A stretch of 64,000 nt of DNA, from the NCBI RefSeq assembly GCF_022009635.1, contig NZ_CP091716.1, forward strand, positions 635,001 to 699,000. Direction: 5' to 3'. Under the pieces are notes generated by a model. It was given only the letters and a program-made list of their open reading frames with translations. It ran no database searches and was not told where the DNA came from. The translations under genes were made by a program, and so were the position numbers. Shown here piece after piece: positions 8,742-19,528 of this stretch. Source of the stretch: Variovorax paradoxus (GTDB taxonomy: Bacteria > Pseudomonadota > Gammaproteobacteria > Burkholderiales > Burkholderiaceae_C). The stretch's first letter is position 1, and the number at the start of each line of letters is the position of its first letter.

Positions 8742-11705
8742 TCAGGTCGCCGAGAGGTGCTTGCCCACGATGCCCGCGAGTTCGAACATCGTCACCTGGT
8801 CCTTGCCGAACACCGGCTTAAGCTTGGCGTCGGCATTGATCGCGCGCTTGTTGGTCGCATCCTGCAGGCCGTTGGCCTTGATGTAGTCCCACAGCTTCTT
8901 GATGACCTCGGTGCGCGCCACCGGTTCGGCGCCGATCACCGCGGCCAGCGAGTCGCTGGGCTTCAGGCCCGCGCCGGGCTTGCGCGGCGCGGCGGCCTTC
9001 TTGGCTGCCGGGGCCTTCTTGGCGGCGGGCGTCTTCTTCGCCGCCACCTTCTTGGCCGCGGCCGTCTTGCCGGCGGGCGCGGCCTTGCCGAAGGTCTTGC
9101 GCGGCGGGAACTTGCTACCGCCTTCGCGCGGTGCAAATTCGAAGGTCACCTTGCCTTCTTCGGCGTTCCAGGTCAGGAAGGCCTTGAAGGCGCGGCGCGT
9201 GCGCATGCTCACGAACTTGTCGAGCAGGTCGGTCTTGCCGGTGGCCAGCAGCTTTTCCATCTGCGCGCGCTCCACCGGCTGCTGCAGGATGATCTTGCCG
9301 GTCTTGAAGGTGCAGGTGGGCGTGGGCTGCGCATTGGTCGGAACCGACTTCTCGCAGACGTAGTTGCTGCCGTGCTCGAACACCGGCGCGCCGCACACCG
9401 GGCACGGGCCCACGGTGTCCTGCTCGCTGAAGTCGACGATCTCGCCGGTGTCGGCGTTCTTGTCGTCGCCGAAGTCGAACTCCAGCTTCCAGTTCTTCGC
9501 CTCGTCGTCGAACTTGATGACGATCTCGGAGGTGAAGGGCCAGCCGGCCTTGGAGCGGAAGCCCTCCAGCGGGCCGATGTGCTTGTCGCGCAGCAGCGCC
9601 TCGGCCTCGGCCACCTCGAAGGTGCGCCCGGCCGGCGACTTGCCGAACGAGAAGCCGCAGGCGTCCTCGCCGGTGCCGCTCTTGCCGGTGCAGGCGTAGC
9701 GGCGGTAGTTCTCGCGCACGATGCCGCCGCAGTTGGGGCACGGCGTCTGCAGGGTGGCGTAGTCGCCCGGCACGGTGTCGCGGTCGTATTCCTTCGCCTT
9801 CTTGACGATGTGCTCCGTCATCTGGGCGATCTCGCGCATGAAGGCGTCGCGGCTGAGCGCGCCCTTCTCCATCTGCGCGAGCTTGTATTCCCACTCGCCG
9901 GTGAGCTCGGCCTTGGAGAGTTCTTCCACGCCCAGGCCGCGCAGCAGCGTCATGAGCTGGAAGGCCTTGGCCGTGGGAATCAGCTCGCGGCCCTCGCGCA
10001 GCATGTATTTTTCGGTGATCAGGCCTTCGATGGTGGCCGCGCGCGTGGCTGGCGTACCCAGGCCCTTTTCCTGCATGGCTTCGCGCAGCTCGTCGTCGTC
10101 GATGGTCTTGCCCGCGCCTTCCATCGCGCCCAGCAGCGTGGCTTCGGAGTAGCGCGCCGGCGGGCGCGTCTTCAGGCCCTTGGTGTCGGCCGATTCGGTC
10201 TTCACGATCTCGCCCGGCTTCACCGGCACGAGGCGCTTGCCGTCCTTGTCGTCTTCCTTCTCGTCGTCCTGGGCTTCCTTGCCGTAGATGGCGAGCCAGC
10301 CCGGCTTCACCAGCACCTTGCCGTCGGTGCGGAAGGGGTACTTCTTGCCGCCCTGCTCCACCGTGCTGATGCGCGTGGTCACCTGGTATTCGGCGCTCGG
10401 GAAGAACACCGACAGGAAGCGGCGCACCACGAAGTCGTACAGCTTCTGCTCGGCCTCGCTCAGGCCGCTGGGGGCCTGCAGCGTCGGGATGATGGCAAAG
10501 TGATCCGACACCTTGGCGTTGTCGAAGATGCGCTTGTTGGGCCGGACGTAGTTGCCGTCGACCGCCTGCTTGGCGAACGGGGCCAGGTGCTTCATGCCGC
10601 TGTTGGCGAGCATGCCCATGGTGTCCTTGACCACCGGCAGATAGTCTTCCGGCAGCGCGCGCGAATCGGTACGCGGGTAAGTCAGCGCCTTGTGGCGCTC
10701 GTACAGGCTCTGCGCCAGCGCGAGCGTGGTCTTGGCGCTGAAGCCGAAGCGGCCGTTGGCTTCGCGCTGCAGCGAAGTCAGGTCGAACAGCATCGGCGAA
10801 GCCTGCGTGGTGGGCTTGCTCTCTTCGGTGACGGTGGCGGGCTTGCCGCGCGCGGCATCGGCGATGGCGCGGGCTTCCTGCTCATTCCACACGCGATCGG
10901 CACGCTGCTCGGGGTCGGGCTCGCCGTTGGCCAAGAGCGGCGCGTTGGCCTTCTTCCAGTCGGGGTTGAACCACTTGCCCGGGTACTCGCCGGCCTCGGC
11001 CGCGAAGGTGCCGTGGATTTCCCAGTAGTCGCGCGAGACGAACTTGCGGATCTGTTCCTCGCGCTCCACCACCACCGAGAGCGTCGGCGTCTGCACGCGG
11101 CCCACGGTCGTGAGGAAGAAGCCGCCGTCGCGCGAATTGAATGCCGTCATGGCGCGCGTGCCGTTGATGCCCACCAGCCAGTCGGCTTCGGAGCGCGAGC
11201 GCGCGGCGTCGGCCAGGCCCTGCATCTGCTTTTCGGTGCGCAGCGCGTCGAAGCCGTCGCGGATGGCCTGCGGCGTCATCGATTGCAGCCACAGCCGCTT
11301 GACCGGCTTGTTCAGGCCCGACTTGCCGCCGGCGTACTGCTCGATCAGGCGGAAGATCAGCTCGCCCTCGCGGCCCGCGTCGCAGGCGTTGATGAGCTGC
11401 GTCACGTCCTTGCGCTTGGCCTGCTTGACCACCGCGTTCAGGCGCGTCTTGGTCTTGTCGACCGGCTTCAAGTCGAAGTGCGGTGGAATCACCGGCAGGT
11501 TGGCGAAGCTCCACTTGCCCCGCTTGACGTCGAATTCCTCGGGCGCCTGGATTTCGACCAGGTGACCGACCGCGCTGGTCACGACATAGCTGTCGTTCTC
11601 GAAATGCTCGTCATGTTTGTCGAATTTGCCGGCCACCGGCGTGAGGGCACGGACGATGTCCTGTGCCACCGACGGCTTTTCTGCGATTACCAACGTCTTT
11701 GTCAT
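8742..11705 (-). CDS. topB: DNA topoisomerase III with Lys/Ala-rich tail and C-terminal SWIB domain
   Basis: Type IA topoisomerase, 987 aa against about 650 for E. coli TopB. Order: Toprim domain (residues 1-150, with ACDAGREGELIFR at 108-120), the catalytic core with the active-site Tyr at about 343 in TYPRTDSRA, Cys4 zinc motifs from about residue 630 onward (CPNCGGIVRENYRRYAC; CPVCGAPVFEHGSNYVC), a histone-H1-like Lys/Ala/Pro tail at about 874-916 (AAKKTPAAKKAPAAKKAA), and a SWIB/MDM2-type domain at about 917-987 (VIKKLWDYIKANGLQD). It decatenates DNA by passing single strands. Its start is 85 bp from a divergent SET-methyltransferase gene. Lysine tail plus SWIB plus SET neighbour recalls chromatin-type modules. 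Confidence 0.95.
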   Translation of the reverse strand: MTKTLVIAEKPSVAQDIVRALTPVAGKFDKHDEHFENDSYVVTSAVGHLVEIQAPEEFDVKRGKWSFANLPVIPPHFDLKPVDKTKTRLNAVVKQAKRKDVTQLINACDAGREGELIFRLIEQYAGGKSGLNKPVKRLWLQSMTPQAIRDGFDALRTEKQMQGLADAARSRSEADWLVGINGTRAMTAFNSRDGGFFLTTVGRVQTPTLSVVVEREEQIRKFVSRDYWEIHGTFAAEAGEYPGKWFNPDWKKANAPLLANGEPDPEQRADRVWNEQEARAIADAARGKPATVTEESKPTTQASPMLFDLTSLQREANGRFGFSAKTTLALAQSLYERHKALTYPRTDSRALPEDYLPVVKDTMGMLANSGMKHLAPFAKQAVDGNYVRPNKRIFDNAKVSDHFAIIPTLQAPSGLSEAEQKLYDFVVRRFLSVFFPSAEYQVTTRISTVEQGGKKYPFRTDGKVLVKPGWLAIYGKEAQDDEKEDDKDGKRLVPVKPGEIVKTESADTKGLKTRPPARYSEATLLGAMEGAGKTIDDDELREAMQEKGLGTPATRAATIEGLITEKYMLREGRELIPTAKAFQLMTLLRGLGVEELSKAELTGEWEYKLAQMEKGALSRDAFMREIAQMTEHIVKKAKEYDRDTVPGDYATLQTPCPNCGGIVRENYRRYACTGKSGTGEDACGFSFGKSPAGRTFEVAEAEALLRDKHIGPLEGFRSKAGWPFTSEIVIKFDDEAKNWKLEFDFGDDKNADTGEIVDFSEQDTVGPCPVCGAPVFEHGSNYVCEKSVPTNAQPTPTCTFKTGKIILQQPVERAQMEKLLATGKTDLLDKFVSMRTRRAFKAFLTWNAEEGKVTFEFAPREGGSKFPPRKTFGKAAPAGKTAAAKKVAAKKTPAAKKAPAAKKAAAPRKPGAGLKPSDSLAAVIGAEPVARTEVIKKLWDYIKANGLQDATNKRAINADAKLKPVFGKDQVTMFELAGIVGKHLSAT

Positions 11706-11734
11706 CTATGGGCTCTCTATACTCTGCGGCTTCC

Positions 11735-11769
11735 CGCGTGCGCACGCGCACACGCGCATGTGTGCATAT
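11735..11769. repeat. 35-nt perfectly alternating pyrimidine/purine tract (Z-DNA-prone)
   Basis: Every base from C11735 to T11769 alternates pyrimidine and purine, with a CG/CA-rich core and no exceptions. Such (CG/CA)n tracts are the best Z-DNA formers under negative supercoiling. It fills nearly half of the 85 bp between the divergent starts of topB (11705) and the SET gene (11791), where both promoters must lie. The tract also contains short palindromes (GTGCGCAC). Confidence 0.8.
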
Positions 11770-11790
11770 TCAAACTAACAGACTTCGGCG

Positions 11791-12456
11791 ATGCCTTCCA
11801 AAACCCCACTTTCCGCCGGTCGCCGAATCCAGATGCGGCGCTCCGATGTCCACGGCAACGGCGTGTTCGCCGTGCAGGACCTGGCCGAAGGCGAAACGCT
11901 GATCGAATACAAAGGCGAGATCATCAGCTGGAAGGAGGCGCTGCGCCGCCATCCGCACGACCCGGCCCAGCCGAACCACACTTTCTACTTCCACATCGAC
12001 GACGGGCGTGTGATCGACGGCAACGTCAAGGGCAACGACGCGCGCTGGATCAACCACTCGTGCGAACCGAACTGCGAGGCGGACGAGGTCGATGGGCGCG
12101 TTTATATCAAGGCGCTGCGCAACATCGCCGCAGGCGAAGAGCTCAATTACGACTACGGCCTGATCATCGACGAGCCTTACACGCCGAAGCTTCTGTCCGA
12201 ATTTCCTTGCTGGTGCGGCTCCGAAGAGTGCCGCGGCACGCTGCTGACGCCCAAGGATGAGGACGAAGAAAAGAAAAAGAAGAAGAAAGACAAAAAGAAA
12301 GCCGAAAAGAAGAAGGCCGAGAAAAAAGAGGCTGAAAAGAAGGAAGCCAAGAAGGCCGAAAAGAAAGCCGGCAAGAAGGCTGAAAAGAAATCGGAAGCCA
12401 AGTCCGGGAAGGCGGAGAAAAAATCCGCCAAGAAGGACAAATCCGAGAAAGACTGA
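11791..12456 (+). CDS. SET domain-containing protein-lysine methyltransferase with charged Lys/Glu tail
   Basis: A 221-aa protein. The SET domain (about residues 12-150) shows VHGNGVFAVQDLAEGETLIEY, the pseudoknot residues INHSCEPNC (87-95) and ELNYDYG (117-123), and a post-SET Cys cluster CWCGSEEC (140-147). These are the SAM- and zinc-binding features of active protein-lysine methyltransferases. From residue 157 to the end the protein is almost only Lys, Glu, Ala and Asp, resembling histone-H1-like tails and probably disordered. It is divergent from the topoisomerase III gene, whose own lysine-rich tail is a candidate substrate. The BirA gene follows after 2 bp. Confidence 0.9.
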   Translation: MPSKTPLSAGRRIQMRRSDVHGNGVFAVQDLAEGETLIEYKGEIISWKEALRRHPHDPAQPNHTFYFHIDDGRVIDGNVKGNDARWINHSCEPNCEADEVDGRVYIKALRNIAAGEELNYDYGLIIDEPYTPKLLSEFPCWCGSEECRGTLLTPKDEDEEKKKKKKDKKKAEKKKAEKKEAEKKEAKKAEKKAGKKAEKKSEAKSGKAEKKSAKKDKSEKD

Positions 12457-12458
12457 GC

Positions 12459-13271
12459 ATGAGCAGCACCACCGCCGACTGGTTCGAAGACCGGATCGCC
12501 GCGGCGGTCGCCCCGCTGCTGCCCGGCTTCACGGTCGAGGCCGTGGCCGAGATCGACTCCACCAATACCGAGCTCATGCGCCGCGCGCGCGCCGGGCGTG
12601 TCGAGCCCGTGCTGCTCGTGGCCGAGCGCCAGACCGCGGGGCGCGGCCGGCTGGGGCGGCCGTGGCAAAGCGCGCCGCGGCAGGAAGCCTCGGCCTCGCT
12701 GGTGTTCTCGCTGGGCCTGCCGCTGGCGCCCGCCGACTGGTCGGGCCTGTCGCTGGCCGTGGGTGTCAGCGTGGCCGAAAGCCTCGACCCCACGGGCGTG
12801 CACAAGGTCGGGCTCAAGTGGCCCAACGACGTGTGGGTCAACGACAGCAAGCTGGCAGGCATCCTCATCGAGACCGCGCTGCCGTCCAATGGTCGGCCCG
12901 ATGCGTCGCGCTACCTCGTGATCGGCATCGGCCTGAACATCGGTGCGCGCGAGGCCGACGGCATGCGCACGCCGCCGGCCTGGCTGCGCCAGTGGCGCCC
13001 CGAGGCCAGCGCGCCCGAGGTGCTGGCCGAGCTGGCCCCGCCGCTGGTGCAGGCCGTGCTGGATTTCGAGGCACGCGGCTTCGCGCCCTTTGCCGAACGC
13101 TTTGCCGCGCGCGACGTGCTGCGCGGGCGTGAAGTGGCGCTCAGCGACGGCACCGCCGGCCTGTGCGAAGGCGTGGCCTGGGGCGGCGAGCTGCAGGTGC
13201 GCACCGACGCCGGGCTGCAGCTGATCTCGAGCGACGAAGTGAGCGTGCGCCCCCGCGGCATGTCTTTCTGA
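12459..13271 (+). CDS. birA: Biotin--[acetyl-CoA-carboxylase] ligase
   Basis: A 270-aa biotin protein ligase, which activates biotin with ATP and attaches it to the carrier lysine of acetyl-CoA carboxylase. Motifs: EIDSTNTELMRRA (31-43), RQTAGRGRLGRPW (57-69), GLKWPNDVWVNDSKLAGIL (118-136) and a C-terminal SH3-like part ending VSVRPRGMSF. It lacks the N-terminal DNA-binding domain of E. coli BirA, so it is the monofunctional type. It starts 2 bp after the SET gene stop, so the two are probably co-transcribed, and the small membrane protein gene follows 13 bp later. Confidence 0.92.
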   Translation: MSSTTADWFEDRIAAAVAPLLPGFTVEAVAEIDSTNTELMRRARAGRVEPVLLVAERQTAGRGRLGRPWQSAPRQEASASLVFSLGLPLAPADWSGLSLAVGVSVAESLDPTGVHKVGLKWPNDVWVNDSKLAGILIETALPSNGRPDASRYLVIGIGLNIGAREADGMRTPPAWLRQWRPEASAPEVLAELAPPLVQAVLDFEARGFAPFAERFAARDVLRGREVALSDGTAGLCEGVAWGGELQVRTDAGLQLISSDEVSVRPRGMSF

Positions 13272-18418: not shown

Positions 18419-19528
18419 TCAGCCGCGCAGCACCAGCGGCGCGAACTTGCGCCGCGCCTTCAGCTGCTCCGCGTCCCACTCGATGCCCAGCCCCGGCGTT
18501 TCCGGCGCCACCGCATGGCCGCCCTCGATGCGCAGCCGGCTGGTGGTGAGGTCGTCGAGCTGCGGGATGTATTCCACCCAGCGCGCATTCGGCACCGCCG
18601 CGCACAGGCTCACGTGCAGCTCCATCAGGAAGTGCGGGCACATCGCGATGCCGTGCGCCTCCGCCAGGTGCGCGATCTTCAGCCACGGCGTGATGCCGCC
18701 CACCCGCGCCACGTCGGCCTGCACGATCGAGCAGGCGCCCTGCTGGATGTATTCGGCGAACTGCGACGGGTGGTACATCGACTCGCCCACCGCGATCGGC
18801 ACGCTGGTGCTCGCCAGCAGCTGCGCATGCGCGCGCACATGCTCGGCCGGCATCGGTTCCTCGAACCAGGCCAGGTCCAGCGGCGCGTACTGGCGCGCGC
18901 GCCGGATGGCCTCGGCCACGGTGAAGCTCTGGTTGGCGTCGACCATCAGCTCGAAGTCCGCGCCCACGGCTTCGCGCACGGCCGACAGGCGCGCGATGTC
19001 CTGCGCCACGTGCGGCTTGCCGACCTTGATCTTCGCGCCCAGGAAGCCGTCGGCCTTGGCCGCGAGTGTCTGCTCCACCAGCTGTGCGGGCTCGATGTGC
19101 AGCCAGCCGCCCTCGGTGGTGTAGACCGGCACGCGCTGCTGCGCTCCGCCCGCCAGCCGCCACAGCGGCAGGTCGACGGCACGCGCGTTGCGGTCCCACA
19201 GCGCGGTGTCGATGGCCGCCAGCGCGAGGCTGGTGATCGCGCCCACGGCGGTGGCATGCGTGTGGAAGAACAGGTCGCGCCAGATGGCTTCGTACTGCTG
19301 CGGGTCGCGCCCGATCAGGCGCGGCGCGAGGTGGTCGTTCAGCAGCGCCACGATGGACGAGCCGCCCGTGCCGATGGTGTAGGTGTAGCCCGTGCCCGCC
19401 GAGCCGTCGTCGCAGCGCACGGTGACCATCACCGTCTCCTGCGTCACGAAGGACTGGATGGCGTCGGTGCGCTTGACCTTCGGCGCGATGTCGATCTGCG
19501 AGATCTCGACCTGGTCGATCTTTGCCAT
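18419..19528 (-). CDS. Mandelate racemase/muconate-lactonizing enzyme family dehydratase
   Basis: Enolase-superfamily enzyme, 369 aa. Key residues: the K-x-K pair K166/K168 (LGAKIKVGK), metal ligands D197 (VDANQSF), E223 (WFEEPMP) and E249 (VGESMYHPSQF), and the D272 (QADVARVGGIT)/H299 (CPHFLMELH) dyad. This set defines the mandelate racemase subgroup, mostly acid-sugar dehydratases that make 2-keto-3-deoxy acids. It is the last gene of the eight-gene operon, 5 bp after the binding-protein gene. With the UxaA-type and SDR enzymes it suggests breakdown of an aldonic or similar hydroxy acid. The exact substrate is not readable. Confidence 0.88.
   Translation of the reverse strand: MAKIDQVEISQIDIAPKVKRTDAIQSFVTQETVMVTVRCDDGSAGTGYTYTIGTGGSSIVALLNDHLAPRLIGRDPQQYEAIWRDLFFHTHATAVGAITSLALAAIDTALWDRNARAVDLPLWRLAGGAQQRVPVYTTEGGWLHIEPAQLVEQTLAAKADGFLGAKIKVGKPHVAQDIARLSAVREAVGADFELMVDANQSFTVAEAIRRARQYAPLDLAWFEEPMPAEHVRAHAQLLASTSVPIAVGESMYHPSQFAEYIQQGACSIVQADVARVGGITPWLKIAHLAEAHGIAMCPHFLMELHVSLCAAVPNARWVEYIPQLDDLTTSRLRIEGGHAVAPETPGLGIEWDAEQLKARRKFAPLVLRG

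What the first reader, a model, noticed from the sequence alone, without database searches (positions are those of the whole stretch)
8742..12456. Topoisomerase III with H1-like tail and SWIB domain, divergent from a SET methyltransferase with its own lysine tail
Seen directly: TopB extends past its zinc motifs into a Lys/Ala/Pro repeat (about residues 874-916) and a SWIB domain (917-987). The divergent gene 85 bp away encodes an apparently complete SET domain with a 65-residue Lys/Glu tail. SWIB-topoisomerase fusions and SET enzymes that methylate histone-like proteins are known from chlamydiae. Inference: the SET enzyme methylates the lysine tail of TopB (or its own tail), giving a bacterial chromatin-like control of DNA topology.
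Basis: partly seen in the sequence, partly recalled or inferred. Interest (0 to 1): 0.8.

Follow-up and report, generated by a model that had tools for sequence, protein, structure and literature searches.

The report
Z-DNA-prone switch between topB and SET
A bacterial DNA-untangling enzyme gene and a histone-methylase-like gene sit back to back in nearly all relatives checked, and the short gap between them keeps a stretch prone to form left-handed DNA, flanked by two facing promoter motifs, which may be a built-in sensor of DNA twist; whether the methylase modifies the untangling enzyme remains open.

Summary
In detail: TopB (987 aa) with Lys/Ala/Pro linker and SWIB, 85 bp from a divergent SET gene with a Lys/Glu tail. 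The pair is conserved: topB is divergent and adjacent in 135 of 140 SET loci fetched from same-family genomes (3 of 5 misses are contig ends), with birA after SET. Methylation of the TopB tail stays open: KK pairs occur in 124 of 133 linkers beside SET but 2 of 7 confirmed SET-less genomes (three losses; contrasts p 0.003-0.06 for three lysine measures, 0.91 for lysine number). No link is significant across the order; SWIB and the SET tail are dispensable. The surprise is the gap: an alternating purine-pyrimidine (Z-DNA-prone) tract, 35 bp here and the only match to a 24-bp alternating pattern in this 7.95-Mb genome. It is the longest run of its locus in 120 of 137 loci, has 108 distinct sequences among 115 tracts, and is missing (0 of 54) upstream of topB in other families. 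A SET-strand -10 motif (80/115) and a topB-strand extended -10 (76/115) face each other across it. Best reading: a supercoiling-responsive switch between two mutually exclusive promoters. Z-DNA formation and regulation are inferred, not shown.

The parts
8742..11705 (-). topB, DNA topoisomerase III with C-terminal basic linker and SWIB domain (987 aa)
   Evidence: NF011313 2008.7 bits, residues 1-985
8958..9086 (-). TopB residues 874-916, Lys/Ala/Pro (H1-like) linker
   Evidence: similar linkers beside SET with and without SWIB
8754..8966 (-). TopB residues 914-984, SWIB domain
   Evidence: Pfam PF02201 E 1.3e-25
11706..11790 (.). 85-bp gap between the divergent start codons, holding the putative regulatory element
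11718..11723 (+). SET-strand -10-like hexamer TATACT (TACAAT in the family consensus), starting 17 nt before the tract
   Evidence: 80 of 115 loci have a >=5/6 -10 hexamer starting 13-18 nt before the tract, shuffled mean 0.88 (the 13-18 range was chosen after the histogram); position
11735..11769 (.). 35-bp alternating purine-pyrimidine (Z-DNA-prone) tract
   Evidence: longest in the 64-kb window, next 21; only site matching the alternating 24-bp pattern in the 7.95-Mb genome; conserved
11772..11780 (-). topB-strand extended -10 TGTTAGTTT (TGnTAnnnT), facing the SET -10 across the tract
   Evidence: 76 of 115 loci within 45 nt of the tract, shuffled mean 6.9 (motif first noticed in loci printed)
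11791..12456 (+). SET-domain protein (predicted protein-lysine methyltransferase), 221 aa
11854..12159 (+). SET domain, residues 22-123 (NHSCEPNC 88-95, ELNYDY 117-122)
   Evidence: Pfam; conserved columns
12208..12231 (+). post-SET cysteines C140, C142, C147
12259..12453 (+). Lys/Glu tail of SET, residues 157-221 (short or absent in many relatives)
12459..13271 (+). birA-like biotin ligase, 2 nt after the SET stop codon, likely same transcript
   Evidence: birA codirectional right after SET in 99 of 100 loci

Best explanation
topB and SET-birA are a conserved divergent unit governed by a DNA-topology-sensitive element in their gap. Shown from sequence: an alternating purine-pyrimidine tract (median 26 bp in 115 loci) lies between a SET-strand -10 motif and a topB-strand extended -10 motif that face each other, inner edges a median 46 bp apart. 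Inferred: the two promoters fire toward and through the tract, so two RNA polymerases cannot occupy them together and the promoters exclude each other. Inferred: negative supercoiling, including that left behind by transcription of either gene, flips the tract to Z-DNA and blocks or shifts initiation, so that the cell's superhelical state sets the output of topoisomerase III and of SET-birA. The sign of the response is not known; my guess is that the Z form represses the SET-birA side first. The SET protein is a vertically inherited chromosomal lysine methyltransferase with an endogenous, unidentified substrate, possibly lysine pairs of basic tails. The TopB linker most likely acts like the lysine repeats of Streptomyces TopA, holding the enzyme on DNA.
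For: Tract: longest alternating run of its locus (mostly 12 kb, some 5-10 kb) in 120 of 137 family loci and 73 of 74 named-genome loci (the two sets share some assemblies; about 2% expected by position, my arithmetic). 110 of 124 gaps exceed the 99th percentile of shuffled gaps; 108 distinct sequences among 115 tracts. In 12 of 17 SET-bearing family genomes searched a 24-bp alternating site lies in this gap, and in 9 it is the only one in the genome (grouped by me). Upstream of topB in other families: 0 of 54 at 16 bp or more. In two genomes where SET and topB are apart, no run above 12 bp is left just upstream of either gene. RNA hairpins are on average not favoured over alternation-preserving shuffles (mean z -0.32). 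Promoter motifs; the extended -10 has 0 hits in the other orientation or on the other side. Linkage; the topB 3' flank is homologous in only 205 of 3655 locus pairs.
Against: No in vivo or in vitro measurement. Alternation could serve another need: AT/TA steps are not clearly depleted (z -1.4), and some shared 8- and 10-mers slightly exceed shuffles (54 against 42-46; 32 against 22-28), so a protein site is not excluded. 18% of tracts do fold better than shuffles (z below -1.5). The energy estimate (sigma -0.036 to -0.048 for all 115 tracts, mostly recalled energies) does not set the tract far apart: two shorter runs of the window score -0.042 and -0.046. The promoters lack a good -35 (10 of 80), the generic scan finds none in the window, both motifs together flank only 50 of 115 tracts, both motifs were chosen after looking, and start sites are unmapped. 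14 of 124 gaps do not exceed the shuffle limit. Of 7 confirmed SET-less loci, 4 keep a run of 16 bp or more upstream of topB (17-21 bp), one has 11 bp and two have none.
Confidence: 0.5

Rival explanations
1. One reading: SET methylates the TopB lysine tail (or its own), a chromatin-like control of topology.
For: Adjacency conserved; SET motifs and post-SET cysteines conserved; within the family SET loss goes with loss of KK pairs (2 of 7 against 124 of 133; contrasts K density p 0.003, KK density p 0.043); a convergent SET-topB adjacency in family f6, 3 genomes of one genus; cpnSET reported to methylate chlamydial H1-like Hc1 (PMC3980110 passages).
Against: Only three losses and six measures; lysine number does not fall (p 0.91) and the order-wide contrasts are not significant; f6 TopB tails have no KK; long SET tails in only 24 of 135; the chlamydial Hc1 result is reported as discordant (PMC6426960 passages).
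Confidence: 0.28
2. SET modifies other endogenous basic proteins (H1/HC2-like protein, free SWIB protein, others), with or without TopB; its place beside topB reflects shared nucleoid-related regulation.
For: The genome encodes an HC2-like AKKA protein (L390) and a free SWIB protein with AKKA repeats (L238). The SET-I region is nearly invariant (W47, A50, R53, H54, P55, H56, D57, P58, H63, T64, F65 in at least 97% of 139), which suggests a specific conserved substrate.
Against: HC2 matches are patchy (7 of 25 genomes searched; those in G027 C21, G044 and G080 fall in the TopB tail itself). Free SWIB persists in all 10 genomes without a SET hit.
Confidence: 0.4
3. The pair is passive synteny: topB, SET, birA and the next genes are an ancestral block without functional coupling.
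For: birA is as conserved beside SET as topB (99 of 100) and the flank after birA is homologous in 3132 of 4656 pairs; SET is missing cleanly between topB and birA in 7 genomes.
Against: The flank beyond topB is scrambled (205 of 3655) while topB stays; a second arrangement (convergent) exists in f6; the gap carries the tract and facing promoter motifs.
Confidence: 0.3
4. The tract is a sequence-specific protein site or a slippage-made repeat rather than a Z-DNA element.
For: Slight excess of shared 8- and 10-mers; pyrimidines are mostly C (1279 C, 316 T).
Against: 108 distinct sequences in 115 tracts with alternation as the common feature; mixed CG, CA, TG and TA steps, not simple repeats.
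Confidence: 0.25
5. SET is a secreted nucleomodulin acting on host chromatin, like LegAS4 or BtSET.
For: Weak NCBIfam match to T4SS_AnkI (40.5 bits); BtSET described in PMC3980110 passages.
Against: Far below that family's cut-off of 550; SET domains present in 190 of 200 genomes of the family, in the fetched loci nearly always in a topB-SET-birA setting.
Confidence: 0.03

Closest known systems
NCBIfam NF011313 / PRK14724 DNA topoisomerase III (with SWIB)
   Same: match over residues 1-985, 2008.7 bits
   Different: nothing seen in the protein; the conserved gap element and SET partner are not part of that model
Chlamydial Topo I-SWIB fusion, SWIB protein and SET proteins (cpnSET/NUE)
   Same: a topoisomerase-SWIB fusion and a SET protein in one genome (PMC6426960 passages)
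   Different: Topo III not Topo I; different phylum; here the genes are adjacent and divergent; no methylation data
Lysine repeats of actinobacterial TopA (Streptomyces)
   Same: H1-like basic C-terminal repeats on a type IA topoisomerase, reported to raise processivity (PMC7398561 passages)
   Different: Topo III with Toprim_Crpt zinc motifs and often SWIB; effect untested here
Supercoiling-coupled divergent promoters (leu and ilvYC operons)
   Same: divergent genes coupled through local supercoiling (PMC10642903 passages)
   Different: here a conserved Z-prone tract between facing -10 motifs, at a topoisomerase gene
Z-DNA-forming regulatory sites (c-myc upstream region)
   Same: Z-susceptible tracts near promoters that flip under transcription-driven supercoiling (PMC3024258 passages)
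   Different: natural bacterial element conserved by alternation across a family; flipping not tested

Membership tests
TopB PRK14724 (NF011313) | whole-protein score above 1088 bits over 988 positions | tested here: met
   2008.7 bits, residues 1-985
SET-domain protein-lysine methyltransferase | NHxCxPN and ELxYDY motifs plus post-SET CxC...C (motif names recalled) | tested here: met
   Pfam E 1.1e-23; MLL1 alignment; conserved columns
SET-domain protein-lysine methyltransferase | methyl transfer to a lysine substrate | not testable with these tools
   needs enzymology
SET/H1-like chromatin system (cpnSET-like) | basic-tail substrate co-evolves with SET | tested here: inconclusive
   family: KK in 124 of 133 beside SET, 2 of 7 SET-less, contrasts p 0.003-0.06 for K density, KK density and KK, 0.91 for lysine number; order-wide p 0.08 or more for the lysine measures
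LegAS4/AnkI effector | NF043024 score above 550 bits | tested here: not met
   40.5 bits
Z-DNA-forming element | long alternating purine-pyrimidine run rich in CG/CA | tested here: met
   35 bp here, median 26 in 115 loci
Z-DNA-forming element | adopts Z form at physiological supercoiling | not testable with these tools
   only a rough, weakly discriminating calculation with mostly recalled energies
Supercoiling-regulated topoisomerase promoter | expression responds to superhelical density | not testable with these tools
   no expression data
Rfam cis-regulatory RNA | match above gathering score in the gap | tested here: not met
   one match, 14.5 bits against a gathering score of 70

The most novel reading that the evidence does not exclude
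A conserved bacterial topological switch: face-to-face promoters of a topoisomerase III and a SET methyltransferase share a Z-DNA-forming initial transcribed region kept by selection on alternation, not on sequence, so B-Z flipping reads local supercoiling and chooses which of the two genes is transcribed; the two products (untangling enzyme and protein-lysine methylase) then act on the same nucleoid, the methylase perhaps on lysine pairs of the topoisomerase tail.
Probability: 0.35. Interest if true: 0.9.

Novelty: new variant of a known kind. Interest (0 to 1): 0.76.

Why it matters
Whether Z-DNA has a selected regulatory role in bacteria has, as far as I know (recalled), mostly been addressed with inserted test sequences. 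Here is a natural tract kept across a family at the promoter of a topoisomerase, in 9 of 17 genomes searched the only site of its length, so the question becomes directly testable with ordinary reporters. The linked SET gene (a SET domain is found in 190 of 200 genomes of the family) is also a tractable case for an endogenous bacterial lysine methylase that is not a host-directed effector.

Tried and rejected
SET-TopB tail coupling by covariation: a first test wrongly counted G123 as SET-less; a SET N-terminus is visible at its contig edge, and in G050 and G080 topB itself starts at a contig edge (places), so only 7 of the 10 genomes without a SET hit are confirmed SET-less. With that mended the family-only contrasts become suggestive for lysine density and KK, not for lysine number or SWIB; order-wide they stay non-significant. 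I raised the odds of tail methylation from 0.2 to 0.28 for this. SET tail as a core feature: rejected, 24 of 135. AlphaFold model of SET (37 close relatives): mean pLDDT 51.6, not used; no fold search was run. RNA hairpin as the reason for the tract: not favoured on average. Rfam: one sub-threshold match. Generic sigma-70 scan of window 11500-12000: none. HC2-like H1 as co-occurring substrate: patchy. Papers: ten searches; among the listed titles and abstract starts I saw none that describes a topB-SET linkage or a Z-DNA element at a bacterial topoisomerase III gene. Searches listed only part of what they found, and the library holds open-licence PMC papers only.
Full report
TopB is 987 aa with Toprim, Topoisom_bac, Toprim_Crpt and SWIB domains; the Lys/Ala/Pro linker is residues 874-916. 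The SET protein has an intact SET domain, closest by sequence among solved structures to MLL1/KMT2A, and a 65-residue tail with 32 lysines. The start codons are 85 bp apart, and a birA-like gene begins 2 nt after the SET stop. The fused TopB is already a named NCBIfam family. The source genome (unnamed) is most likely a Variovorax: the best named-genome hit is 98% identical over 150 SET residues in Variovorax sp. E3.

Linkage. A SET domain occurs in 190 of 200 same-family genomes (126 genera sampled) and a SWIB domain in 200 of 200. From the ranked list I fetched the first 140 SET loci, 140 different genomes (the list was cut before all matches were shown). topB is divergent and adjacent in 97 of the first 100 and 38 of the next 40. 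Of the five misses, three are contig ends (L088, L249, L275), one has topB about 8 kb away (G072) and one has a SET away from topB (G125). In named genomes 75 of 80 are adjacent and the other 5 are contig ends; some of these are the same assemblies. As a control, 2.5 kb beyond the topB 3' end is homologous in 205 of 3655 locus pairs and the stretch beyond birA in 3132 of 4656: the block ends at topB. In the order-wide sample 29 of 120 genomes have a SET match. Among 54 long-TopB loci of other families fetched with about 5 kb on each side, SET lies beside topB only in f6 (3 genomes of one genus), convergent at the 3' side, and 4.6 kb away in G292. It is 17 kb away in G255 and, if those chromosomes are circular, about 12 kb in G229 and G272 (positions; my arithmetic).

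Does SET act on the TopB tail? In 133 SET-adjacent TopBs with a complete C-terminus, SWIB is present in 80 and absent in 53. Only 24 of 135 SET proteins have ten or more lysines after the core. Ten of the 200 genomes had no SET hit. In seven of them birA is directly divergent from topB, so SET is really gone; in the other three topB lies at a contig edge, and in one of these (G123) a SET N-terminus is visible. In the seven, five linkers keep 9-12 lysines and two, of one genus, are short and Arg-rich without lysine; at least one KK occurs in 2 of 7 against 124 of 133 beside SET. Independent contrasts on the TopB tree (194 tips; 10 loci with incomplete or missing TopB dropped), family only (133 SET+, 7 SET-less, three changes by parsimony): K density p 0.003, KK density p 0.043, KK p 0.061, K/(K+R) p 0.054, lysine number p 0.91, SWIB p 0.50. 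Order-wide, with two codings of SET presence: KK p 0.08 and 0.20, other lysine measures p 0.13 or more, SWIB p 0.74-0.76. In f6, where SET touches topB, the TopB tails are Arg-rich without KK. So the covariation is suggestive within the family but rests on three losses and six measures. The family's SET-I region is nearly invariant (W47, A50, R53, H54, P55, H56, D57, P58, H63, T64, F65; 97% or more of 139 sequences), which suggests a fixed substrate, and the genome has other basic candidates: an HC2-like protein and a free AKKA-SWIB protein. Precedent for SET acting on a bacterial H1-like protein is cpnSET on Hc1 (PMC3980110 passages), called discordant elsewhere (PMC6426960 passages). Lysine repeats on Streptomyces TopA raise processivity (PMC7398561 passages), my default reading of the TopB linker.

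The gap. Aligning the gap in Variovorax and near relatives showed a tract that keeps purine-pyrimidine alternation while bases change. In the window it is 11735-11769, 35 bp, the longest in 64 kb (next 21). In 137 family loci (140 minus three contig ends) the longest alternating run of the whole locus (mostly 12 kb, some 5-10 kb) lies within 260 bp upstream of the SET core in 120, and 115 have a run of 16 bp or longer there; in named genomes 73 of 74 are rank 1. Against shuffles of each gap, 110 of the 124 gaps no longer than 400 bp exceed the 99th percentile (13 bp), with a median of 24.5 bp (11 longer gaps dropped). There are 108 distinct sequences among 115 tracts. Searching whole genomes for an alternating 24-mer: of 17 SET-bearing family genomes, 12 have it in this gap, 9 of them nowhere else, the window's genome included; six other sites exist among the 17 (sites grouped by me). 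In the seven confirmed SET-less genomes, the run upstream of topB is the longest of the locus in 5, but 16 bp or longer in only 4 (17-21 bp); two have none. The tract therefore does not strictly need SET, but it is shorter or missing without it. Upstream of topB in other families it is 0 of 54 at 16 bp or more. In G072 and G125, where topB and SET are apart, the best run upstream of topB is 11 bp, and that upstream of SET 12 and 9 bp.

Promoter motifs. A -10-like hexamer (5 of 6 or better) on the SET strand starts 13-18 nt before the tract in 80 of 115 loci, against a shuffled mean of 0.88; consensus C-TACAAT-CCGGGC. The 13-18 range was chosen after seeing the histogram. An extended -10 (TGnTAnnnT) on the topB strand lies within 45 nt on the other side in 76 of 115, against 6.9, with none in the other orientation or on the other side; I noticed it in loci printed, then counted it. 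Both are present in 50 of 115, inner edges a median 46 bp apart. No good -35 is seen (10 of 80). If these are the promoters, each transcript begins near an edge of the tract and runs through it, and two polymerases cannot bind at once. This geometry is inferred from motifs; no start site is mapped. The confirmed SET-less loci printed still show a TACAAT hexamer.

Z-DNA. With nucleation energy and helix geometry as in PMC3024258 passages and dinucleotide energies recalled, all 115 tracts are predicted to flip at sigma -0.036 to -0.048 in a 4-kb domain, the range usually quoted for bacteria (recalled). The estimate discriminates little: two shorter runs of the window come out at -0.042 and -0.046. 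AT/TA steps are not clearly depleted (z -1.4) and some 8-mers are shared slightly more than in shuffles. RNA hairpins are not favoured on average (mean z -0.32), though 18% of tracts have z below -1.5. That a Z tract in the initial transcribed region can block RNA polymerase is recalled from Peck and Wang (1985), not read here; supercoiling coupling of divergent promoters is in PMC10642903 passages.

Verdict. Each protein is of a known kind and the TopB-SWIB fusion is a named family. What appears new, as far as my ten paper searches show, is the family-wide topB-SET unit and, above all, the conserved alternating tract between facing promoter motifs. I rate the regulatory reading at even odds; tail methylation is possible, with weak support.

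Noticed in passing
L237 (G000:C1:4706410-4718718): Second SET gene in the same genome, a distant paralogue ending MLAPEEEAEAPAA.
   Followed up: partly
L390 (G000:C1:1580611-1581141): HC2/H1-like protein, 181 aa of AKKAPAKKA-like repeats: a candidate SET substrate.
   Followed up: partly
L238 (G000:C1:3087458-3087673): Free SWIB protein (160 aa) with an AKKAAAPAKK repeat N-terminus, the same basic-linker-plus-SWIB order as the TopB C-terminus.
   Followed up: partly
L223, L225, L229 (family f6, one genus): A SET gene convergent with topB, matched cores about 100-200 nt apart: a second kind of SET-topB adjacency.
   Followed up: partly
G000:C2:35320-37170 and G000:C1:3319940-3321802: Two further, weaker topB-like matches (open frames 765 and 806 aa) in the same genome.
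   Followed up: no
window 18822-18842: Second-longest alternating purine-pyrimidine run of the window (21 bp).
   Followed up: no
L240, L267 (family loci with core-to-core gaps of 744 and 676 bp): Longer topB-SET gaps in which another coding stretch may lie between the genes; no alternating run of 8 bp or more within 260 bp upstream of the SET core there.
   Followed up: no
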